Source: Bacteroidales bacterium | GTDB taxonomy: Bacteria; Bacteroidota; Bacteroidia; Bacteroidales; UBA932 | Direction: 5' to 3' | Length of the DNA: 44,290 bases | Assembly: GCA_017473705.1 (NCBI GenBank) | Contig: JAFUJQ010000038.1 | Location: forward strand, 1-44,290 | In this document: positions 139 through 11,599 of the stretch, piece after piece | Layout of the letters: every line of letters begins with the position of its first letter | How positions within the stretch are numbered: the stretch's first letter is position 1 | The notes under the pieces: model-generated | The model's input: only the letters and a program-made list of their open reading frames with translations | The model's database searches: none | Told to the model about the DNA's origin: nothing | Translations under genes and position numbers: made by a program

Positions 139-1278
139 CCTCAAAACTATACTGTCACAAGAGCAGATAATGGCGCAATAACTGTCGCCAAAGATGGAGA
201 AGTCTGCTCAAATGCGAAAGCTGCTTTGAGGGAAATTGCCTCTCAGGCAGGTTTTACGATCGACGAGAAGTGGAATACATATCAGATCGGTGCAAAACTG
301 ATTTCTTTCCTTGAAAATAAGGGTCTTGTCCCAACTACTGATATTGAGAAAGCTGTCGAAGGCAGTGCTGCAGAAATTGCCGGAGCAAAAGTCAGGGTAT
401 ATGGTAAAGCCCAGAACAGGACAGTTCTCGGCATTGCTCATGCATATATGATCATGTATCCTCATGCTAAACTCGAAGATCTTCGAAAGGCCTTTCCAAA
501 CAGCCTCAATCCGACAGCCGGTACCGACGAACTTTTCACATATGCGACAGTTCCGACTCCGAAAGGGGAATATAGAAGTTATTTCGATCTTCCTGAAGAA
601 TTGCTTGTCACAGGTGATGGCAAGAAGGTCCAGATGGCATGCATGTGGACCAAGCCGACATTCGAGAGGATTGTTTCTCACGCTAAACAATATGGTATCA
701 TTATAGCCGATTTCGAAAAGGCATCAGGTGGAGCAAAAAAGGGAGGATTCCGTCTTGAATACCTGAATGGTTATGTGCCGCCAGTTCAAAAGAAATCCAG
801 AGCAGGTCTGTGGATAGCTATTGCCGTCATCGCAATACTGCTGGCTATCCTTGCTTTCCTTCTTGGCCGCAAGCCTGAACCTCAGATTGTCGAGAAGGTG
901 GTGACAGTTGTCGATACCGTATATGTTCAGCAGATAGAAGAGATAGAGAAGAACTTCAATGCAGCTGAATTCGTTGCCGGAAAGGCAGACCTCAGCGAGT
1001 CGGCCAAGTTCGTCCTTCACGATCTGGCCAAGATGATGCAGAAACATCCAGAAATCAAGCTTCAGCTTGTCGGACATACATCGGCAGAGGGGGATGCCGC
1101 TTTCAATCAGAAACTTTCAGTAGACAGAGCTCAGGCTGCGGTAGACTTTATGGTATCGCACGGCGGCATTGATGCTTCGCGTCTGGAGGCTATCGGAAAG
1201 GGTTCGTCAGAACCAAAGAATGCCGAGAACCCCGAGGCACCAGAAAACCGCAGGACCGAATTCATTGTAGTAGAATAA
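139..1278 (+). CDS. 5'-truncated inner-membrane protein with C-terminal OmpA-like domain
   Basis: The frame is open from just after the TGA at 136-138 and has no ATG before the conserved region. A TTG at 226 would cut into a domain, so I read the gene as missing its original start. In order it encodes: a short module (roughly 160-320) with the signature DGEVCSNAKAALREIA, shared with the gene at 2549; an unrecognised globular part; one membrane segment (about 805-867); and an OmpA-like peptidoglycan-binding domain with LVGHTSAEGD and the LSxxRAxxV motif. The likely topology is N-terminus in the cytoplasm and OmpA domain in the periplasm. If the start has really been lost, expression would need a promoter and start supplied by the flanking element, or the gene is dead. 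Confidence 0.75.
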   Translation, partial: PQNYTVTRADNGAITVAKDGEVCSNAKAALREIASQAGFTIDEKWNTYQIGAKLISFLENKGLVPTTDIEKAVEGSAAEIAGAKVRVYGKAQNRTVLGIAHAYMIMYPHAKLEDLRKAFPNSLNPTAGTDELFTYATVPTPKGEYRSYFDLPEELLVTGDGKKVQMACMWTKPTFERIVSHAKQYGIIIADFEKASGGAKKGGFRLEYLNGYVPPVQKKSRAGLWIAIAVIAILLAILAFLLGRKPEPQIVEKVVTVVDTVYVQQIEEIEKNFNAAEFVAGKADLSESAKFVLHDLAKMMQKHPEIKLQLVGHTSAEGDAAFNQKLSVDRAQAAVDFMVSHGGIDASRLEAIGKGSSEPKNAENPEAPENRRTEFIVVE

Positions 1279-1324: not shown

Positions 1325-1639
1325 ATGGCAGAATTTACACTCAACGGCCGTACTAAGGTAAAGACCCTTAAGGCTAACTTCAAGGAGAACTTCGGTTCAA
1401 CACTTCGCGTTTACAAGAGCGCAACTTGCAAGGGCGCATTCGCAGACGATGACGCAACTCTCGCTTCAATCCGCGCAGAGGGCTTCAAGGGCGGCGACCT
1501 CGTAGTTAAGGGCAACATGCAGGTAGGCAACTTCGAGAAGAAGGTGGCTGAACTCTACGGTATCGGTGTTCAGGTAGCAAACGCTGACGACACTAAACTC
1601 GCAGACAACACAGTTACTCTCGTAGCAGCTGGTAAGTAA
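1325..1639 (+). CDS. Small conserved protein of unknown function, 104 aa
   Basis: An acidic/basic 104-aa protein with no signal peptide or membrane segment, beginning MAEFTLNGRTKVKTLK. The same module occurs at residues 60-156 of the protein encoded at 2549: NGRTKVKTLKANFKENFGS aligns with NRRTKVIELKKQFHERFGS, and KGNMQVGNF with RGNLQVGTF. The alternating strand-like and helix-like pattern would fit a compact alpha/beta fold. Codon choice is strongly biased (AAG, CGC, CTC, GGC, GAG), like pfkA at the other end of the window, which suggests high expression. I know similar proteins in Bacteroides only as hypothetical. ATG 1325 follows an A/T-rich leader with no clear Shine-Dalgarno sequence. 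Confidence 0.85.
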   Translation: MAEFTLNGRTKVKTLKANFKENFGSTLRVYKSATCKGAFADDDATLASIRAEGFKGGDLVVKGNMQVGNFEKKVAELYGIGVQVANADDTKLADNTVTLVAAGK

Positions 1640-1710: not shown

Positions 1711-1956
1711 ATGACCAAGGAGTATTACAAGAAGAAGATTATCGATCTTCGTGCTGATATTGCGAAGGAGAAGGAAGCAAAGAAGCGTGACAATGAACGT
1801 TATGCAGCACTTATAAAGGGGGCTTCCTCTCCTTCAAGCAAGGCTTCATACAGAAAGAGCAAGGTAGATGCTGCAGCTCGTCATGACCGTGACATTGAGA
1901 GATACAAGCGTCAGATCGAAGATGCCAAGGAGGCATTGGCAAGACTGAAGAAATAG
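1711..1956 (+). CDS. Small charged coiled-coil protein, 81 aa
   Basis: The protein starts MTKEYYKKKIIDLRADIAKE at ATG 1711. An upstream in-frame TTG at 1654 lies inside the stem-loop region and is less likely. It is almost entirely Lys/Glu/Arg/Ala with heptad-like spacing, broken by a short SSPSSKASY linker, which predicts two helices forming a coiled coil. There is no signal peptide. Its TAG stop shares its last base with the GTG start of the next gene, so translation of the two is probably coupled. Function unknown. Confidence 0.7.
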   Translation: MTKEYYKKKIIDLRADIAKEKEAKKRDNERYAALIKGASSPSSKASYRKSKVDAAARHDRDIERYKRQIEDAKEALARLKK

Positions 1957-2531
1957 TGAAAGTTCTGATCACAGGATTTGAACCATTCGGCGGAAGCTCT
2001 ACCAATTCGTCTTGGGAAGTCGCTTCCGCTGTTTCGCGTGTTCATATATCCGGAGTCAGCATTGAGGCCAGGTTGCTTCCGGTCAGTTTTGGAAGAGTGG
2101 GTGATGTGCTGAAAGGTGTCATTGCAGAGGTCGCTCCTGACATCCTTATCATGCTTGGCCAGTCTGGCCAGAGCGAGTCCATCAGGATAGAGCGCATAGC
2201 GATCAATATGATGGATTCGTCAAAGCCCGACAATGACGGCTATGTCCCTGATGAGGAGGTCATACATCCGGACGGCCCTTCTGCATTGTTCTCGACCCTT
2301 CCGCTCAAGCCATTGCGCAATGTGCTGGTCGCTCAGGGACATAAGGTCAAGATATCGAACAGTGCGGGCTTGTATGTCTGCAACAGGACATACTATGAAG
2401 CGTTGTACCATTTATCTTCACAAGGACGTGCCACCCGTTCGGTCTTTGTACACCTTCCGAAGATTTCGGACGAATGGCCGCTTTCAAGACTCCAGCATAC
2501 TGTGATGCAGTTGATTCAAGTCTTAATTTAA
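1956..2531 (+). CDS. pcp: Pyroglutamyl peptidase I (C15 family)
   Basis: Removes N-terminal pyroglutamate from peptides in the cytoplasm. The catalytic residues of peptidase family C15 can all be read: Glu79 in RIERIAIN, Cys142 in AGLYVCN and His166 in FVHLP, with the family N-terminus MKVLITGFEPFGG. At 191 aa it is slightly shorter than the usual 200-215 but looks intact. The start is GTG, overlapping the TAG of the coiled-coil gene by one base (TAGTG). An enzyme of this type is unexpected within a block of structural and unknown proteins. It might process one of their N-termini, but that is speculation. Confidence 0.93.
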   Translation: MKVLITGFEPFGGSSTNSSWEVASAVSRVHISGVSIEARLLPVSFGRVGDVLKGVIAEVAPDILIMLGQSGQSESIRIERIAINMMDSSKPDNDGYVPDEEVIHPDGPSALFSTLPLKPLRNVLVAQGHKVKISNSAGLYVCNRTYYEALYHLSSQGRATRSVFVHLPKISDEWPLSRLQHTVMQLIQVLI

Positions 2532-2548
2532 ATTATAATTATAACAAT

Positions 2549-4390
2549 ATGGGACTATTAGGTAAATTTGCTAGAGGGCTTGCTGGCCTCTCTGAAAAAC
2601 TTGAAGACAGCATTGAAAAGTTCTCCGATAAATTACAAGATGGGATAGAGCATATCTCTGACAAAATTGAGGACGGAGTAACTGACTTTGTTGATAATCT
2701 ATATGGGGATGATGACTCTGCCAATGCATTCATCCTTAACAGAAGAACAAAGGTCATAGAACTGAAGAAGCAGTTCCATGAAAGATTTGGATCAGTACTG
2801 CATGTTTATGAGGGACGTTCGCAGGTTGACGATGCCGCGACTCTTGCGGAAGTAGGGCTTACCAATCAAGGTACATTCGAGTGCAGAGGCAACCTGCAGG
2901 TGGGCACATTCATCACCAGGATGGCAGAAGAACACGGCCTGAAGGTCAAGGTGTACACCTGTGACGACTGGGTGGCAGTACTTGACGGCCTTACTCTTAC
3001 CGCTTCCGGACTCGTGAAGAAGAGTGCGACCAGGGCTGATATGGAAACTATGCTGGCAGGTCCGTCTGAAGGTGCTGCAGCATCAGGAAAGACTCCGGTA
3101 TCGGAAGTCAAGGCCGGAAGTTTCTCCATAATAAAGAACAGCGACGGCAGTTACTCCGTTTCAATTGACGGAAACATATGCTCAAACTCGAAGGGAGCTA
3201 TGCGCCAGATTGCAGAGGCTTTGGGATTTGAGTACGACAAGGCTTGGACAACTCAGCAGTTTGGAGCAAAGCTCAGTAGGTTCATTCAGGAGAATACCGG
3301 AGTTGCCGAGTCTGCCCCGGCGCAGAAAGAGGAACCGGCTCAGGAACCCAACCCTGCCGTAGATGAACTGAAAGCAGAGGCTGAAAGGCTCAAAGCGGAG
3401 GCCGAGGCAGCTAAGGCGGAAGTGGAGGCAGCAAAGGCAGCGGCAGAAGCAGCAAAAGCAGAAGCCGCAGACAAGGCTAGGGCGGAAGCAGAGGCGGCAA
3501 AGGCTGAAATTGAGAGACTAAAAGCAGAAGCCGAGGCTGCAAAGGCTGAAGCGGAGAAAGCAAAACGTAAAGCTGAAAAGGCAAAGGCAGCACCAGCTTC
3601 AGTATCCGTCAAGGCAAATAAGAAGGATGGAGAGCTCCCTGGAGTGTTTACATTGAAAGACGGCAGAAAGATCTGCTTTTCAAAGGGAAATCTGCAGTTC
3701 CACTGCAAGAACTATGAGTTCAAGTTTGCTGAGGAGCAGTATGAGACTTTGGGAAAGGAAGCAAATGAGAAGTGTGCCCCAGATTATGATGGTTGGATTG
3801 ATATTTTCGGATGGGGAACATCCGGATATATGGGTTGTCAGCCGACTCTGCTTAGTTTCAAAGAAAATGCATATGGTCCTGCAGCCGGAGATCTTACTGG
3901 TGAGAATGCAAACTTTGACTGGGGTGCATATAATCCGATATCTAATGGCGGAAATCAAGAGGGTCTTTGGCGTACTCCAACCAAAGAGGAAATGGAGTAT
4001 CTTTTGGAAAGAAGGCCAAACGCAGATAAGCTAGTAATATGGTGCAACGTTTGCGATAACCCCGGTTGGATATTGCTGCCTGATGACTTCTGGAATAATA
4101 GACTACGTTTTGCTATTGATGTTACAGCATCGTATTCGTGTTTGGAAAATAAATTTGATGCCATACAATGGAGCGAGTTGGAGTCAATGGGCGCAGTATT
4201 CTTCCCTAAGTCAGATTATAGATGCGCAAGTAATGAAAAATACTGGGAAAACTATGATGACGGGAGGTGTTACAGACTTTGGACAACTGTGCGAAATTGG
4301 AACTTTGGGAAGAGTGGTGTAGATGAAGAGGATTGTTCATGGATGCGCCCATGTAGATTTCCTGTCCGCCTCATAAAAGACCTAAAATAA
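2549..4390 (+). CDS. Multi-module coiled-coil protein with C-type-lectin-like C-terminus
   Basis: I take ATG 2549 (613 aa) as the start because a longer frame would overlap pcp. In order: an amphipathic helical N-terminus (1-50); the module of the 104-aa protein (60-156); the DGNICSNSKGAMRQIAEALG module shared with the gene at 139 (about 190-250); an Ala/Glu/Lys coiled coil (270-347); and a C-terminal domain (364-613). The last has the pattern FSKGNLQF...WIDIFGWGTSGY...ISNGG...GLWRTPTKEEM...RFPVRLIKD, typical of FISUMP/formylglycine-enzyme-like domains with a C-type-lectin fold, common in Bacteroidota. There is no signal peptide. Such domains bind ligands and are sometimes variable, but no reverse transcriptase is present here. 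Its role may be to link the two smaller modules to a binding domain. Confidence 0.82.
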   Translation: MGLLGKFARGLAGLSEKLEDSIEKFSDKLQDGIEHISDKIEDGVTDFVDNLYGDDDSANAFILNRRTKVIELKKQFHERFGSVLHVYEGRSQVDDAATLAEVGLTNQGTFECRGNLQVGTFITRMAEEHGLKVKVYTCDDWVAVLDGLTLTASGLVKKSATRADMETMLAGPSEGAAASGKTPVSEVKAGSFSIIKNSDGSYSVSIDGNICSNSKGAMRQIAEALGFEYDKAWTTQQFGAKLSRFIQENTGVAESAPAQKEEPAQEPNPAVDELKAEAERLKAEAEAAKAEVEAAKAAAEAAKAEAADKARAEAEAAKAEIERLKAEAEAAKAEAEKAKRKAEKAKAAPASVSVKANKKDGELPGVFTLKDGRKICFSKGNLQFHCKNYEFKFAEEQYETLGKEANEKCAPDYDGWIDIFGWGTSGYMGCQPTLLSFKENAYGPAAGDLTGENANFDWGAYNPISNGGNQEGLWRTPTKEEMEYLLERRPNADKLVIWCNVCDNPGWILLPDDFWNNRLRFAIDVTASYSCLENKFDAIQWSELESMGAVFFPKSDYRCASNEKYWENYDDGRCYRLWTTVRNWNFGKSGVDEEDCSWMRPCRFPVRLIKDLK

Positions 4391-5357: not shown

Positions 5358-5834
5358 ATGAGAAAATTTGTATCTTTACTTATTGGTTTAATTATCGGAT
5401 CTACGGTATCATTATATTCGACATCAATGGCAGATACACACATTTATCGCGGAAGGTATACGAATACCTCCGATATTCTTACGACCTGGGACGGAAAGCA
5501 TCTTTATTCCGGCAGGTATACAAACACTTCTGACATTCTCTATACATGGGATGGAAGGCATTTATACAGAGGGCGTTATACGAATACCTCCGACATTCTG
5601 TACACGTGGGATGGGAAGCATGTCTATCGTGGAAGATATACGAACACTTCGGATATCCTCTATACATGGGATGGAAGGCATTTATACAGAGATCGTTACA
5701 CTAATACTTCCGACATTCTGTATACATTCGACGGCAAGCATATTTACAGGGGCCGATATACCAATACGAGCGATATACTTTTGACTACAGACGGCATGAT
5801 TCCTATACCCGTAATGTTGATGGTAATTATATAA
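5358..5834 (+). CDS. Secreted or anchored protein with six 20-aa repeats
   Basis: A 158-aa protein with an N-terminal hydrophobic segment (MRKFVSLLIGLIIGSTVSL) acting as signal peptide or anchor. Six nearly identical 20-aa units follow, with consensus H(L/I)YRGRYTNTSDILYTWDG(K/R). The Tyr/Trp/Asp-rich strand-like units suggest a beta-solenoid or propeller-like surface. The last unit breaks into a hydrophobic tail (MIPIPVMLMVII). In the alternative frame the same DNA reads SYTRNVDGNYIIFYE, closer in style to the repeat, so a recent frameshift near 5780 is possible. AAGGAG lies 11 bases before the ATG. Function unknown. Confidence 0.8.
   Translation: MRKFVSLLIGLIIGSTVSLYSTSMADTHIYRGRYTNTSDILTTWDGKHLYSGRYTNTSDILYTWDGRHLYRGRYTNTSDILYTWDGKHVYRGRYTNTSDILYTWDGRHLYRDRYTNTSDILYTFDGKHIYRGRYTNTSDILLTTDGMIPIPVMLMVII
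5439..5798 (+). repeat. Six tandem 60-bp coding repeats
   Basis: Six in-register 60-bp units start at 5439, 5499, 5559, 5619, 5679 and 5739. The block around TATACGAATACCTCCGA is nearly constant. Differences between copies are mostly synonymous or conservative, which implies selection on the protein repeat together with occasional copy exchange. Confidence 0.95.
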
Positions 5835-6143: not shown

Positions 6144-7391
6144 ATGGCAAAATTCATAGGACTTTCTAAAATAACATCAGGTATATCCAATGTTGTCGAT
6201 AAGGTCAAGGACCATTTGAACAGTGAGGACGAGCAGCCACAAGATAATGTGCCGACAGTCGTGGATTCAATGGCTGAGATGGAACAGCTGATCTGTCAGC
6301 TCAGGACTGGAGCGCCTGTAAACGTCGGAATGGTTCTACAGCAGGAGCTCAGCGTCCTGAAATTCATAGAGTCGCCGAGTATGTCAGGAATGATTGTGGA
6401 TAATATAATAGTGTGTCTGCATAAGGCGCTTGATTCAGCGGAAACTGAGGAGGAGAAGCAGCAGCTTCGAGACTCGATAACTTCAATGCTCCAGAGCGTG
6501 CTGTTTGTGTCGGAGGCCAGACTTCAATACGCAATCAGAAAAGACAAGGAAGAGGCAGTTGAAATGATGGCAAATGCCGGCAATCTTCTGGCGGACAGCG
6601 TTTCCGGACTTGCATATATGATGCTTCCCGGCGGTCAGGCCAAGGCTGTTCCAATGGTGAAGAATATCCTTGATCCTGCTGTACTTGGTTCTTCCGTAAC
6701 GAATTTCCTGACTGCTAGAAAAAAGCAGGAGATGCTGGAGGAAAAGATCAAGGATCATAACGAGATGTTGGAGAACCTCTTCAAGACTTTTGACAGATAT
6801 TTCCCGATCATAGGTCCGTCCATACAGATCCATGGAATGCTGTCGAGGTATGTGAAGCAGTTGGAGCGCAGTTATAGGGAGGCACAATATAAAGAGGTCG
6901 AATCTTATACGACCAGACTGTCTGAGCAGAAAGAATCCCTTGTCAGCAATGCTGCATCATCAGTTCACAAGAACCTGGGTAACAGCCTGTACGAGAGGGT
7001 GGCCAAAGGGGTCCTCGACGTGGTAGGTTCGTTGGCGAATGCATTAAAGAAGCCAGATACCTTGACTTATGAGGAAGTGAAGCAGCTCCACATTATCCAG
7101 AAAAACAAAGTAGAAACAGTCCGGGAAAAGATTGCTCTCATCCATACGGTGTTAAGCGACAAGAAGGCACAGCTTGAATCAGCAGGACTCTTCCAGGCAA
7201 GCCTTAAGAGCAGGCTGACGAGTGAAATCAAGGCAACAGAGAAGGAATTAACAGCTCTGAATCAAGAACTCATTGACGCTGAAGAAAAACTGAGGATAGT
7301 CCAAGATATGATAATTCCTGCGGAAGAACGTGTCGCCGCATATGTTTCAGACCTCTGCAGAATAGCAGAGAAATATGCAATCAGCTTATAA
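6144..7391 (+). CDS. Helical coiled-coil protein of unknown function, 415 aa
   Basis: Cytoplasmic, without signal peptide. The N-terminus (SKITSGISNVVDKVKDHL) is an amphipathic helix like that of the protein at 2549. The rest is helical, with one apolar stretch (SVSGLAYMMLPGGQAKAVPMV, about residues 153-172) and long coiled coils in the C-terminal half. The layout, with helices around a short apolar hairpin, could fit a membrane-associating or scaffold protein. I do not recognise a family. It sits 14 bases before the first channel gene and may be its partner. Confidence 0.75.
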   Translation: MAKFIGLSKITSGISNVVDKVKDHLNSEDEQPQDNVPTVVDSMAEMEQLICQLRTGAPVNVGMVLQQELSVLKFIESPSMSGMIVDNIIVCLHKALDSAETEEEKQQLRDSITSMLQSVLFVSEARLQYAIRKDKEEAVEMMANAGNLLADSVSGLAYMMLPGGQAKAVPMVKNILDPAVLGSSVTNFLTARKKQEMLEEKIKDHNEMLENLFKTFDRYFPIIGPSIQIHGMLSRYVKQLERSYREAQYKEVESYTTRLSEQKESLVSNAASSVHKNLGNSLYERVAKGVLDVVGSLANALKKPDTLTYEEVKQLHIIQKNKVETVREKIALIHTVLSDKKAQLESAGLFQASLKSRLTSEIKATEKELTALNQELIDAEEKLRIVQDMIIPAEERVAAYVSDLCRIAEKYAISL

Positions 7392-7405: not shown

Positions 7406-9118
7406 ATGAATGCGAGGATTGAGAAATTCAGAGAAGAACTGAACAGGGTCTTTGATGATGATCTGCACACTAAACAATGGCATAATTACGTGGATTATGC
7501 CATCATCGGTCTTATTGTCATTTCTACGATAGAAGTTTTCCTGTCCACATATGACGGCATCGTTGAACGTTATGGCAAATGGCTGCATTTTGTGGATTAT
7601 TTCACCACGATATTCTTTACGATAGAGGTCAGTCTCAGAATCTGGTGTGCAGACCTGCTTGATGAGAAGTATAAAGGTTTCTGGGGAAGAGTCAGGTATT
7701 GCTTCTCATTTTATGGACTGATAGACATCCTGTCTACATATCCGTTCTACCTGAGCTTCTTCATGAAGGTTCCATATGCTGCTCTGAAGGCTCTGCGAAT
7801 CGCCCGCCTTCTCCGTATCTTCAGATACATGAAGGCGTTCAACATCCTGTCTCGCGCGATAAAGGCAAAGAAGCAGGAGATGATCGTGTCGCTGCAGTTC
7901 CTCACGATTGTGACGCTGATCCTTTCTTTCGTGCTTTTCTTTGTCGAGCACGCGGCGCAGCCTGAAGTCTATGACAACGGATGGACATCAGTCGTATGGG
8001 CTTTTGCTCAGTATATCGGCGATCCTGGCGGGTTTGCCGACACTCCTCCGATCACATTCACGGGCAGGATCATCGCCTGCATCATCGGTGTGCTTGGAAT
8101 CGCAATCTTCGCAGTGCCAGCCGGTCTTATAGGATCGGCATTCACCGAAGTCATGGATGCGGATAAAGAGGATGAGCACATCAAGAACAATATTGAAAGA
8201 ATACGTCATTCGTTCAAATTTGAAAAGGATCAGCAGCATACCAACCTTTTCCATGTCCCGAGATATCAGCCCGTCGATACGATACTGACGCGAAAGTTCA
8301 TTCCACAGATCGATATCATCAAGGCAGTGGAGGCCTCAGACTGCTTCCATCTATACAATCTTGCCTCTTCTTTGAACCGAAATGACAAGCCGGAAGATAA
8401 AATTGTAGTCATCAACTATCTGAAGAATACTCCTTACGGATGTTGCATAGACCGAGGCTCAAAAGTTACGATAGTGTTTACTTCAGGCCCGACAGAACCG
8501 ATGACAGGATGGTTTGCATATCATATAGCTAAACTTGGCGGATTCAACTATGTCTCAAAAGAGATTGAAGTTGACGCAGATAATCCCGTTACATATTATA
8601 ATATAGAAGATGAAGCTGCTTGTCCGAATATGAGGCTTTTCCTTGATGATATAAATCGCCTGACTTCAAGACCGGGTTCATGGGCGATACCTGTCCTTGG
8701 AGCTGTAGGGCTGATGTCTCGTCCTACGAAGATTCATTTCTGCTATAATACTGTCAAGCACGATGCCGGTTATGATGATCCGGATGCTAGGATAGCTGAT
8801 TATCAGACATTTGATTCGCTGTATTTAAAAGTGGCAGATGTAATGGATGTAAGATATGACTTGAAGTGTGACAGGAATGAATGGTATGCTGTCCAGAAAG
8901 AAAAGAATATTGCATATCACATAAATGCAGAAAATGTATTTACTTTGCGTGTAGAAGCATATCTGTTTACCTTTGATAACCGCTACCTGGAGATTGTCAA
9001 AACCCTTGCAGATGCTTTCAATGGGGCTTTGGAGCCTGAAATCAGGAAAGAACTTCCTTGTGAGATGCTGAACAGACGGATAGGCTATGACTTTGGATTT
9101 AGCGATTATATCAATTAG
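7406..9118 (+). CDS. Voltage-sensor ion channel with non-canonical pore and novel C-terminal domain
   Basis: A six-helix ion-transport-type membrane protein of 570 aa. S4 is clear, with charges every third residue (K128, R131, R134, R137, R140, K143). S6 has the bacterial Kv-like IAIFAVPAGLIGSAF (232-246). Where Kv channels carry TVGYGD, this pore loop reads AQYIGDPGGF (201-210) before TPP, so potassium selectivity cannot be assumed. Residues about 290-570 form a cytoplasmic domain shared with the channel at 9899 and unfamiliar to me, with the signature PYGCCIDRGSKVTI. It is probably co-transcribed with the barrel gene and the second channel. Confidence 0.85.
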   Translation: MNARIEKFREELNRVFDDDLHTKQWHNYVDYAIIGLIVISTIEVFLSTYDGIVERYGKWLHFVDYFTTIFFTIEVSLRIWCADLLDEKYKGFWGRVRYCFSFYGLIDILSTYPFYLSFFMKVPYAALKALRIARLLRIFRYMKAFNILSRAIKAKKQEMIVSLQFLTIVTLILSFVLFFVEHAAQPEVYDNGWTSVVWAFAQYIGDPGGFADTPPITFTGRIIACIIGVLGIAIFAVPAGLIGSAFTEVMDADKEDEHIKNNIERIRHSFKFEKDQQHTNLFHVPRYQPVDTILTRKFIPQIDIIKAVEASDCFHLYNLASSLNRNDKPEDKIVVINYLKNTPYGCCIDRGSKVTIVFTSGPTEPMTGWFAYHIAKLGGFNYVSKEIEVDADNPVTYYNIEDEAACPNMRLFLDDINRLTSRPGSWAIPVLGAVGLMSRPTKIHFCYNTVKHDAGYDDPDARIADYQTFDSLYLKVADVMDVRYDLKCDRNEWYAVQKEKNIAYHINAENVFTLRVEAYLFTFDNRYLEIVKTLADAFNGALEPEIRKELPCEMLNRRIGYDFGFSDYIN

Positions 9119-9133
9119 CAGATAGTGCAGACT

Positions 9134-9889
9134 ATGAAAAAACTATTATTTGTATTGTGTGCCATTTGCGCATCATTGGGAATGCAGGCACAGGATGAGG
9201 CGAGCTTTACGGCTGACAGGCCTGGAGCGTCTACTGGCCCTGGCGTTGTAGGTCATAATGTGATACAGCTTGAGCAGGGACTCCAGTATGATGGTGATGG
9301 CGGGGCAGGAACAATTACTTTCAGCAATACATTGCTCCGATATGGATTATTCCCGGGAATGGAGCTCCGAATCGGAGGAGATGGTTTCCTATATCAGGAC
9401 GATGTCCTGAACAATGGATTCAAGGCTGCATTTTCTGGCTTGAGCTTCGGAACGAAGATTCAGTGCTTCGAGGGCAGGGGAGCCATACCGGCGCTTTCTG
9501 TCATGGCAGACTTCTCCATCCCTCATACAGCCAGCGAGGGCTTTAATGTCGACCATCTTGCACCTTCATTGTATCTCCTTTTCGAAAATCCGGTGACCGA
9601 TTGGTTCAGTATAGGATACAACGTCGGAGCAGAATGGGATGGAACCCTTCCGTCCGCGACCACATTTGCTGCGCTTTGCCTTGGTTTCAGCCTGACGGAC
9701 AACCTCGGATGCTTTGCCGAAAGCTACAATTATTTCGGAAGCCTGGGAAATGTATACGCAATGGATTTCGGATTCAACCTTATGGTCGGCAGGAAGGTGC
9801 AGCTTGACATAGCGGCAAATGTAGACCTTCAGCATCCGGCCCAGAGCTGGGCGATAAGCTGCGGCGTAGCATGGCAGATCAATAAATAA
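9134..9889 (+). CDS. Outer-membrane beta-barrel protein (transporter/phenol_MetA_deg-like)
   Basis: A signal peptide (MKKLLFVLCAICASLGMQAQ) precedes a roughly 230-aa barrel rich in alternating aromatic and small residues, ending with a strand-like VAWQINK. ADRPGASTGPGVV near the mature N-terminus is typical of the annotated 'transporter' barrels related to meta-pathway phenol-degradation proteins. I chose ATG 9134; the GTG at 9125 would add three residues before the signal peptide. It lies between two paralogous inner-membrane channel genes, which suggests passage of a solute or ion across both membranes, but this is inference. Confidence 0.8.
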   Translation: MKKLLFVLCAICASLGMQAQDEASFTADRPGASTGPGVVGHNVIQLEQGLQYDGDGGAGTITFSNTLLRYGLFPGMELRIGGDGFLYQDDVLNNGFKAAFSGLSFGTKIQCFEGRGAIPALSVMADFSIPHTASEGFNVDHLAPSLYLLFENPVTDWFSIGYNVGAEWDGTLPSATTFAALCLGFSLTDNLGCFAESYNYFGSLGNVYAMDFGFNLMVGRKVQLDIAANVDLQHPAQSWAISCGVAWQINK

Positions 9890-9898
9890 ACTTGACAT

Positions 9899-11599
9899 AT
9901 GACTGAATTTCAGAAGATAAGAAGAGCCATTGCAAATGCTCTGGATGACGAGAAGAACACTTTGGTGGACAGGATTGTCGACTGGACTGTCATTGCGCTG
10001 ATTCTTATCAGCAGCATTGAGGTCTTTTTGTCGACCTTCCCGGCTGTAAATGAGAAGCTTGGTGGAGTATTGAACTTCATCGACATATTCACGACTGTTA
10101 TCTTTACAATCGAAGTCACACTGCGAATATGGCTGGCTGGAGACATCAATCCAAAATATAAGGGATTCAAGGGCAGACTGAAATACTGCTTCAGTTTCTA
10201 TGGATTCCTGGATATCATTGCGACGTATCCGTTCTACCTTGGATTCTTCTTCCCGATTCCATATTCTGCATTCAAGGTTCTTCGAATTGCTCGTCTGCTC
10301 AGGATTTTCAGGTATATGACTTCCTTCAAGCTCCTGAAGGCGGCTTTCATGTCGAAGAAGGCGGAGCTGGCGGTGTCTCTTCAGTTCCTGTGCATAATAA
10401 CGCTTATTCTTTCTTTTGTGCTTTTCTTTGTTGAGAACAAGGTGCAGCCGGATGTTTATAAAAACGGGTGGAAGGCTGTCTTATGGGCTTTCAATCAATA
10501 TATCAAAGATCCGGGAGGACTTGCATACACACCTCCGATCTCGATGATCGGAAAACTGATTGCCGTGGCGATCGGTATCTTGAAGATAGCGATCTTTGCA
10601 GTTCCGGCCGGTCTTATCGGCTCCGGCTTCCTTCAGGCTGTGAATGCTGAGAAAGAGAAGGAGAATCTCAAGAACATTTCAGACAAGCTTCACCAGGCAT
10701 TCGAGAGGACTCCTGATGTCTATACAGGATTCTTCCTGTCGCCGATGAGCCTTCCGTTTGGAAACATTCAGGCCTCTCAGGGGCTTGCAGAGGCCGATAT
10801 ATTCAAGGCAGTAGATATTGCAGAAGATTTCAGGGTCGTGAACCTTGCCATCACTCGTCCAATAGACACGATTACTCCAGACAAGCTGGCGATAGAACAT
10901 TTCGTCCTCAATCGTCCTTACGGATGTTTCATAAACAGGGGATCAAAGGTTACAATTGTTGCTCCAACCAGCAGCATGGACCCTGCGATCGGATACTATG
11001 CATATTATCTGGCAAAGATTGGTGGATTCAACCTTGTCAGCCGCGAGCTTGGCGTATCACGCCCATACAGATCGTTCTATAACCAGACTTACAAAGGGGA
11101 TGTACCGGGCTTGAATGAATTTATGGGAGACATCAATTCCTTGACTTCAGAAAATGGTACATGGGTGATCACTCTTCTGCCGTCAAGCGGTAACAAGGAA
11201 CCGGAATTCCCGACAAGCATTCACCTTGCATATGGTGGAGCAAAGGGAGACGAGACCTTCAATGGATCCGATCTGCTTGTCAAGGATGTCCAGCTTGCTG
11301 AGAAACTCTTCTCTGAAATCGAATCGTCTATGGATGACTCGTTCGGATTGAAGACAGACAGGCAGAGATATCATGACACGACAAGTCCTGACCTGTTCAT
11401 GCGCAAGCTTGATAATACTCAGAATATCAATGCATTCGTTCTCCGCATTTCATGGAGTGCCTTCCTTTGGAATGCAAGGAAGATCCAGATGGCGAAGGAA
11501 CTGGCGGATGTCATCAACAGAAACATCGGCAATCCTGACCACGTCATATCTCCGGAACTGAAGGAAAAGGCAATCGGATTTGCTGATTATTCCGATTAA
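9899..11599 (+). CDS. Second voltage-sensor ion channel paralogue
   Basis: At 566 aa it is closely related in layout and sequence to the protein at 7406. S4 is VLRIARLLRIFRYM (127-140). S6 is KIAIFAVPAGLIGSGF. The pore loop reads NQYIKDPGGL (199-208) before AYTPP, again without a TVGYG filter. The C-terminal domain has RPYGCFINRGSKVTI and YYLAKIGGFNLVSREL, matching the paralogue. Conservation of the xYIxDPGG loop in both copies argues that it is functional and not a damaged filter. The stop codon overlaps the stop of the convergent gene by four bases. Confidence 0.85.
   Translation: MTEFQKIRRAIANALDDEKNTLVDRIVDWTVIALILISSIEVFLSTFPAVNEKLGGVLNFIDIFTTVIFTIEVTLRIWLAGDINPKYKGFKGRLKYCFSFYGFLDIIATYPFYLGFFFPIPYSAFKVLRIARLLRIFRYMTSFKLLKAAFMSKKAELAVSLQFLCIITLILSFVLFFVENKVQPDVYKNGWKAVLWAFNQYIKDPGGLAYTPPISMIGKLIAVAIGILKIAIFAVPAGLIGSGFLQAVNAEKEKENLKNISDKLHQAFERTPDVYTGFFLSPMSLPFGNIQASQGLAEADIFKAVDIAEDFRVVNLAITRPIDTITPDKLAIEHFVLNRPYGCFINRGSKVTIVAPTSSMDPAIGYYAYYLAKIGGFNLVSRELGVSRPYRSFYNQTYKGDVPGLNEFMGDINSLTSENGTWVITLLPSSGNKEPEFPTSIHLAYGGAKGDETFNGSDLLVKDVQLAEKLFSEIESSMDDSFGLKTDRQRYHDTTSPDLFMRKLDNTQNINAFVLRISWSAFLWNARKIQMAKELADVINRNIGNPDHVISPELKEKAIGFADYSD

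What the first reader, a model, noticed from the sequence alone, without database searches (positions are those of the whole stretch)
7406..11599. Paired voltage-sensor channels without the potassium filter, flanking an outer-membrane barrel
Both paralogues keep a full S4 ladder and a Kv-type S6, but in place of TVGYGD they have xYIxDPGG before a conserved TPP. Such conservation in two copies implies a different selectivity. Between them is an outer-membrane barrel gene, so the three could move one solute across both membranes under voltage control.
Basis: partly seen in the sequence, partly recalled or inferred. Interest (0 to 1): 0.7.

Follow-up and report, generated by a model that had tools for sequence, protein, structure and literature searches.

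The report
Voltage-sensor channels with swappable tails
Some gut and rumen bacteria carry a family of voltage-sensor ion channels that have replaced the potassium filter with a different conserved loop and that exchange their inner tail domain while keeping the channel part constant; what they conduct and why is unknown.

Summary
Window 7406-9118 (A) and 9899-11599 (B) are 6-TM voltage-sensor proteins with an intact sensor and a Kv/KCNQ-like S6 but no TVGYGD; a PF13557 barrel gene lies between them. They belong to a Bacteroidales family (95 unique sequences) with a nearly invariant pore loop W-x-F-x-x-Y-x-x-D-P-G, forming its own clade (99/99). The ~310-residue tail matches no curated domain.

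The three-gene transenvelope conduit is not supported: channel-barrel-channel occurs in 1 of 81 loci, the barrel in 25.

Two unexpected things emerged. (1) The membrane part stays constant while the tail is exchanged: two genomes share 97% DNA up to channel codon 256, then tail (33% aa) and next gene differ. (2) The gene sits in a mosaic island: a 104-aa protein is in 10 of 12 channel-carrying and 0 of 20 channel-less genomes of the genus, and 8 of 9 pyroglutamyl-peptidase genes found in carriers lie within 9 kb of a channel.

Best reading: a gated channel no longer built for K+ selectivity, with an exchangeable sensor/effector tail. Structure prediction never ran (server busy), so selectivity and tail function are inferred.

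The parts
7406..9118 (+). Channel A: voltage sensor + pore + ~310-residue cytosolic tail (570 aa)
   Evidence: Ion_trans 1.5e-20; KCNQ3 1.3e-19; family alignment
7997..8047 (+). Pore loop of A, residues 198-214 (W-A-F-A-Q-Y-I-G-D-P-G-G-F-A-D-T-P), in place of the K+ filter
8174..9118 (+). Exchangeable C-terminal domain of A (from about residue 257); only Ion_trans is found in A, and a profile of residues 285-570 finds no PDB chain better than E 0.41
   Evidence: boundary from other loci
9125..9889 (+). Outer-membrane beta-barrel-type gene (PF13557), optional neighbour of these channels
9899..11599 (+). Channel B: diverged paralogue of A (566 aa, 44% identical)
10484..10534 (+). Pore loop of B (W-A-F-N-Q-Y-I-K-D-P-G-G-L-A-Y-T-P)
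10661..11599 (+). C-terminal domain of B (32% identical to that of A)
1956..2531 (+). Pyroglutamyl peptidase (Pcp, PF01470), the only match in this 71%-complete genome; recurrent neighbour of the channel family
1711..1956 (+). 81-residue charged protein, coiled-coil-like by eye (family in 46 of 81 loci); its frame overlaps the Pcp start by 1 nt
1325..1639 (+). 104-aa island protein (10 of 12 channel carriers, 0 of 20 non-carriers in the genus)
226..1278 (+). Island protein of the cluster whose member L052:4568-5521 has an OmpA domain (31 of 81 loci); the true start may lie upstream
2474..4390 (+). 638-aa island protein holding a second, diverged copy of the 104-aa domain (2729-3010, 44%)
5358..5834 (+). 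6-fold beta-flower protein (PF21786)
   Evidence: 2e-40
6144..7391 (+). 415-aa island protein of unknown function, 14 nt upstream of A (its cluster is directly beside 5 of 91 channel genes, this one included)

Best explanation
A and B are members of a distinct Bacteroidales clade of 6-TM voltage-sensor channels, nearest in sequence to Kv/KCNQ channels, in which the K+ filter is replaced by a conserved D-P-G loop. SHOWN: intact voltage-sensor residues, Kv-like S6, absence of GYG across the clade, strong purifying selection on the membrane part, an unrecognised C-terminal domain, exchange of that domain at the end of S6 in several loci, and placement in a mosaic island. INFERRED: the proteins form tetramers; the pore conducts ions with selectivity other than K+ (a ring of four Asp206 suggests cations, perhaps Ca2+ or non-selective; the Lys209 subgroup must differ); the C-terminal domain is a cytosolic sensor or effector that sets when the pore opens; exchanging it retargets one conserved channel to different inputs or partners. 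Peptidases (Pcp; M20/M42-like) and the barrel are optional partners that may remove or deliver a ligand.
For: Sensor and pore residues invariant or nearly so in 95 unique proteins. DPG clade 99/99, apart from 20 GYG and 6 Nav-like channels, with filter columns left out. Membrane-part dN/dS 0.02-0.14 in the 36 inter-locus pairs with membrane dS < 1. Tail exchange: 6 of 13 same-genome pairs have membrane parts 88-94% but tails 26-41% identical; in the 5 of these that lie on one contig (L028, L030, L034, L045, L101) membrane dS is 0.28-0.63 against tail dS 1.2 to saturated. L032/L066, from different records: 97% DNA over the upstream genes (one ~490-bp indel apart) and up to channel codon 256, then tail 33% aa and a different next gene, then synteny resumes at 84%. 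L041/L067 and L044/L068 also stop matching at codon 257. Island linkage: 104-aa protein 10 of 12 vs 0 of 20 genomes; 8 of 9 Pcp genes in 18 carrier genomes within 9 kb of a channel, none in 20 non-carriers of the genus (within the genus 3 of 8 carriers, Fisher p 0.017).
Against: No structure, conductance or ligand data: every structure prediction met a busy server. Residue 209 varies (G/N/K), so one selectivity for all members is unlikely, and a non-conducting voltage sensor cannot be excluded. Tail type does not predict which peptidase follows (nearest-by-tail match 10 of 31, shuffle mean 15.2; nearest-by-membrane-part 17 of 31), which argues against a specific tail-peptidase pairing. 26 of 81 loci have neither Pcp, barrel nor M20-like gene within three genes, some of them near contig ends; 9 of 18 carrier genomes, several incomplete, show no Pcp. 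The window pair shows no recent homogenisation (membrane 59%, tail 32%), and in L037 both parts stayed alike. Fisher tests ignore kinship and genome completeness.
Confidence: 0.5

Rival explanations
1. Polymorphic conflict system: the channel is a membrane-depolarising effector of a defence or inter-strain system, its exchangeable tail recognising different triggers, within an island of kinases, KAP NTPases and nuclease-like genes.
For: Sparse distribution (12 of 400 genomes of the genus with a full-length copy; 11 of 393 in the order sample); tail exchange at one place in the gene; representatives of island gene clusters are a kinase, a KAP NTPase (which hits PADLOC QatA/PifA/PDC-S20 models), a GIY-YIG protein and TerB proteins.
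Against: Of 10 island proteins scanned with PADLOC, channel A, barrel, Pcp, M20-like and four others had no hit at E 0.01; the 80-aa protein had a weak SduA hit (0.0013) and only the KAP NTPase strong ones. No relative in viral contigs, none of A's tail in phages. Tails of one type are under purifying, not diversifying, selection.
Confidence: 0.25
2. Transenvelope conduit: the barrel passes a solute through the outer membrane and the channel through the inner membrane, with peptidases digesting it (peptide uptake).
For: Barrel directly beside a channel in 17 of 81 loci, and in the genus sample only in channel carriers (3 of 12 vs 0 of 18); Pcp and M20-like genes abut the channel gene.
Against: Barrel absent from 56 of 81 loci; channel-barrel-channel order only in the window. 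A Kv-type pore is narrow for peptides (general knowledge).
Confidence: 0.1
3. Voltage sensor without conduction: the pore loop is structural, and membrane potential drives the cytosolic domain, as voltage-sensing phosphatases couple a sensor to an enzyme (recalled).
For: Voltage-sensor residues complete, K+ filter lost, large conserved cytosolic domain.
Against: Pore helix, DPG and the S6 hinge are about as conserved as the sensor, which a dead pore would not need.
Confidence: 0.15

Closest known systems
KCNQ/Kv voltage-gated K+ channels (PF00520) and bacterial GYG-type relatives
   Same: 6-TM layout, S4 ladder, F-x-x-E and S3 Asp, PAG hinge in S6; best PDB hits
   Different: No TVGYGD; D-P-G loop, 2 residues longer when anchored on the pore helix; unknown ~310-residue tail; separate clade
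Bacterial Nav/Cav-like channels (filters T-x-E-G-W or T-G-D-x-W; label by motif, recalled)
   Same: Superfamily; genes of this kind also lie in 11 of 81 of the same loci
   Different: Different pore loop; separate in the tree
Distant Bacteroidota proteins L131, L132, L133
   Same: 6-TM protein fused to a tail similar to about 100-110 of the 291 positions of the C-terminal profile (E 6e-12 to 1e-7); no TVGYGD
   Different: Other pore loops (TGSTPQGFEP; NDAIGYQEAGLLP); place in the tree unsure, L131 above all
Polymorphic toxin systems (PMC3482391; only the abstract's start, in the search listing)
   Same: Constant part with diverse C-terminal domains generated by recombination
   Different: Here the constant part is a 6-TM channel; no toxin domain recognised

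Membership tests
Voltage-gated cation channel superfamily (Ion_trans) | S1-S6 with S4 charge ladder and charge-transfer residues | tested here: met
Kv/KCNQ K+ channels | TVGY/FG selectivity filter (consensus stated in PMC7576140, passages seen; KcsA TVGYG in PMC4565861, passages seen) | tested here: not met
   0 of 95 family sequences have it
Kv/KCNQ K+ channels | K+-selective current | not testable with these tools
   needs electrophysiology
Bacterial Nav/Cav-type channels | Acidic residue followed by W in the filter (recalled) | tested here: not met
   alignment; separate clade
Channels with a known cytosolic domain (RCK, CNBD) | Recognisable RCK/TrkA or cyclic-nucleotide-binding domain | tested here: not met
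   no such family among the 17 scattered Pfam matches (E up to 1) of 40 tails; the best, PF09062 (intein endonuclease subdomain) at 5.1e-5, is in 1 of 40 members; no PDB profile hit better than E 0.41. Fold not tested.
Known anti-phage systems (PADLOC 2.0.0) | Match to a system protein | tested here: not met
   channel A, barrel, Pcp, M20-like gene: no hit at E 0.01; B was not scanned
PF13557 outer-membrane barrel (window 9125-9889) | Profile match above cut-off | tested here: met
   50.3 bits vs cut-off 22

The most novel reading that the evidence does not exclude
A polymorphic ion-channel system: one conserved voltage-sensor pore of new selectivity (Asp-ring D-P-G filter, with a Lys-ring subtype) carries interchangeable cytosolic receptor domains that are exchanged by recombination at the end of S6, within a mosaic island, so that bacteria swap the input to a channel as they swap toxin or receptor domains.
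Probability: 0.3. Interest if true: 0.85.

Novelty: new variant of a known kind. Interest (0 to 1): 0.62.

Why it matters
A survey of Kv-like and CNBD channels, mainly eukaryotic, says that strong departures from TVGY/FG are rare and a feature of single channels rather than clades, metazoan CNG channels being the one exception in its set (PMC7576140, passages seen). A bacterial clade with a new, nearly invariant loop is a natural experiment on how a K+ filter can be rebuilt. Exchange of cytosolic domains under a constant channel would offer ready-made chimeras for testing channel gating. The same paper says that the physiological role of such channels in protists and prokaryotes is not understood; the island linkage gives a concrete genetic handle.

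Tried and rejected
Structure prediction: 31 calls to structure prediction all returned 'machine is busy'. No model exists, so fold search was not used and the tetramer pore could not be inspected.

Considered and rejected: a fixed A-barrel-B unit; tail type dictating the peptidase partner (negative); an internal duplication of the tail (hhalign E 0.12); a viral origin (tail of A in phages); a full-length relative on plasmids (0 of 32 matching records cover 80% of A). G380 could not show an empty site: its contig ends within the 9.4 kb fetched.

Literature: searches listed no paper whose title or abstract start describes this channel family, its island or a channel-Pcp link; one search showed 15 of 316 papers and one search showed 10 of 21. 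Passages only were seen of PMC6281302 (one 6-TM K+ channel in six Bacteroides strains), PMC4565861 and PMC7576140; PMC7159879 has no occurrence of 'ion channel'. Subscription papers are not held, so absence from print is not shown.

Limits: loci come from the best 80 of 117 relatives, so the most distant members are missing; the L105-L116 genus loci mostly repeat them. Of the 91 channel ORFs of 400 aa or more in 81 loci, 2 (L068, L077) are cut by contig ends. Genes were called mechanically (longest non-overlapping ORFs, first possible start) and clustered by BLAST, so overlaps and neighbour counts are approximate. Nearly all of the 80 loci carry titles of uncultured or metagenome-assembled genomes. 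The labels M20/M42-like (best Pfam match M42, E 0.0058, below cut-off; none for another member), lipoprotein and coiled-coil-like are by eye.

Full report
What is there. The window carries, co-directionally and with gaps of 6 and 9 nt, channel A (7406-9118), a PF13557 barrel gene (9125-9889) and channel B (9899-11599). A and B share 44% identity; their first ~250 residues match Ion_trans and, in the PDB, KCNQ and Kv channels. The remaining ~310 residues hold no Pfam domain in A or B. Forty tails from residue 285 on, scanned one by one, gave 17 scattered families, each in at most 2 members, the best at 5.1e-5 in one; their profile found no PDB chain better than E 0.41. A third copy lies on another contig of the same genome (L019), 94% identical to A in the membrane part but 26% in the tail, with an M20/M42-like peptidase gene directly downstream.

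The family. One scan of genome contigs gave 117 relatives, of which the best 80 were kept, all from Bacteroidales or Bacteroidia records, nearly all gut and rumen metagenome assemblies, with one named isolate, Porphyromonas uenonis. In 400 genomes of the window's genus 21 matched at 1e-20; 12 of these have a full-length copy, one a tail fragment, one a short piece with a stop, and 7 match in the membrane part only. In 393 genomes of the order 11 matched at 1e-60. The 111 ORFs of the family found reduce to 95 unique proteins.

The pore. None of the 95 has TVGYGD. Instead W198, F200, Y203, D206, G208 (95 of 95) and P207 (94) are kept; residue 209 is G 64, N 17, K 10, other 4; 210 F/I/V/L/Y; 211 A 85 or G 10; 212 D 79 or E 10. 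On the S6 side the loop aligns without gaps to KCNQ3, PGGFAD opposite TIGYGD; anchored on the pore helix it is two residues longer than bacterial GYG channels. The voltage sensor is complete: K/R128, R131, R134, R137 (94 of 95), R140, F71, E74, D107. A tree without the filter columns puts the 24 sampled DPG proteins in one clade (99/99), apart from 20 GYG and 6 Nav-like channels; the three distant proteins do not form one group, and L131 has a long, unsure branch. The membrane part evolves under strong purifying selection: dN/dS 0.02-0.14 in 36 inter-locus pairs. The loop is therefore a maintained feature, not decay. That it alters selectivity is inferred; an Asp ring would favour cations, and a Lys ring in the K209 subgroup something else. 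Nine of the 10 K209 members lack Pcp, barrel and M20-like neighbours within three genes.

Constant channel, exchanged tail. Of 13 same-genome pairs, 6 have membrane parts 88-94% identical while tails are 26-41%. In the 5 of these that sit on one contig, membrane dS is 0.28-0.63 while tail dS is 1.2 to saturated. In the sixth, window A against the C62 copy, the membrane part is conserved at protein level although synonymous sites are near saturation (dS about 2). L037 is an exception with both parts alike (94%, 85%); in the other six pairs, window A and B among them, the membrane parts are themselves diverged (58-81%). The clearest case is between two genomes: L032 and L066 share 97% DNA through their upstream genes (one insertion of about 490 bases apart) up to channel codon 256; then tail and next gene differ (a Pcp gene in L066, a cluster-37 gene in L032, of which L066 keeps a shortened relative), and synteny resumes at 84%. 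Two further pairs, L041/L067 and L044/L068, stop matching at codon 257. Where tails are of one type they too are conserved (dN/dS 0.04-0.28, the highest at dS 0.02). I read this as recombination exchanging cytosolic domains under a fixed channel; chimeras in metagenome assemblies are the main technical worry.

The surroundings. In 81 loci (80 plus the window) mechanical gene clustering finds an 80-aa protein in 46, a 104-aa protein in 44, Pcp in 40, an OmpA-domain protein in 31, the barrel in 25, a lipoprotein-like gene in 24, a Ser/Thr kinase in 21 and an M20/M42-like peptidase in 17; 76 of 81 hold at least one of these eight. On the two sides of 91 channel genes the immediate neighbour is Pcp 28 times, barrel 18, M20-like 17; the called Pcp frames overlap the channel frame in 18 of 28 cases, though some overlaps may come from start calling. 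Genome-wide, Pcp occurs in 9 of 18 channel carriers, one gene each; 8 of these 9 lie within 9 kb of a channel, including the one in this window, and the ninth (G380) on another contig. None occurs in 20 channel-less genomes of the genus, against 3 of 8 carriers of the genus (Fisher p 0.017). The 104-aa protein is in 10 of 12 carriers and 0 of 20 non-carriers (Fisher 1e-6). These tests ignore kinship. Eleven loci also hold a Nav/Cav-like channel. So the channel is one module of a mosaic island, not of a barrel-channel pair. The test of whether tail type goes with the kind of peptidase was negative (10 of 31, shuffle mean 15.2).

Verdict. The transenvelope idea is not supported. The best reading is a voltage-sensor channel of changed selectivity with an exchangeable cytosolic sensor or effector; a conflict-system role is the chief rival. 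Without a structure model or currents this stays at about even confidence.

Noticed in passing
L026, L033, L035, L036, L058, L059, L063, L068, L076, L096, L101: A second, Nav/Cav-like channel gene (257-333 aa, filters such as TVEGWYEIP or TGDAWTD) lies in the same locus as the DPG channel in 11 of 81 loci.
   Followed up: partly
window 1325-1639 and 2729-3010: A 104-aa protein/domain of unknown fold tracks the channel in the genus (10 of 12 carriers, 0 of 20 non-carriers) and recurs inside longer island proteins.
   Followed up: partly
L002, L065, L088, L089, L093, L094, L095, L099, L100, L104: A subgroup with Lys at the position aligned with the first Gly of GYG (10 of 95); 9 of the 10 lack Pcp, barrel and M20-like neighbours.
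   Followed up: partly
L131, L132, L133: Distant Bacteroidota channel proteins with similar tails and other non-GYG loops; L132/L133 (NDAIGYQE) look intermediate between GYG and DPG.
   Followed up: partly
L005 1483-2031 (genome G031): An apparently truncated copy: only the tail of the channel, 35-36% identical to A.
   Followed up: no
window 5358-5834: A 6-fold beta-flower protein (PF21786) of near-identical repeats; relatives lie in 2 other channel loci, L047 and L053.
   Followed up: no
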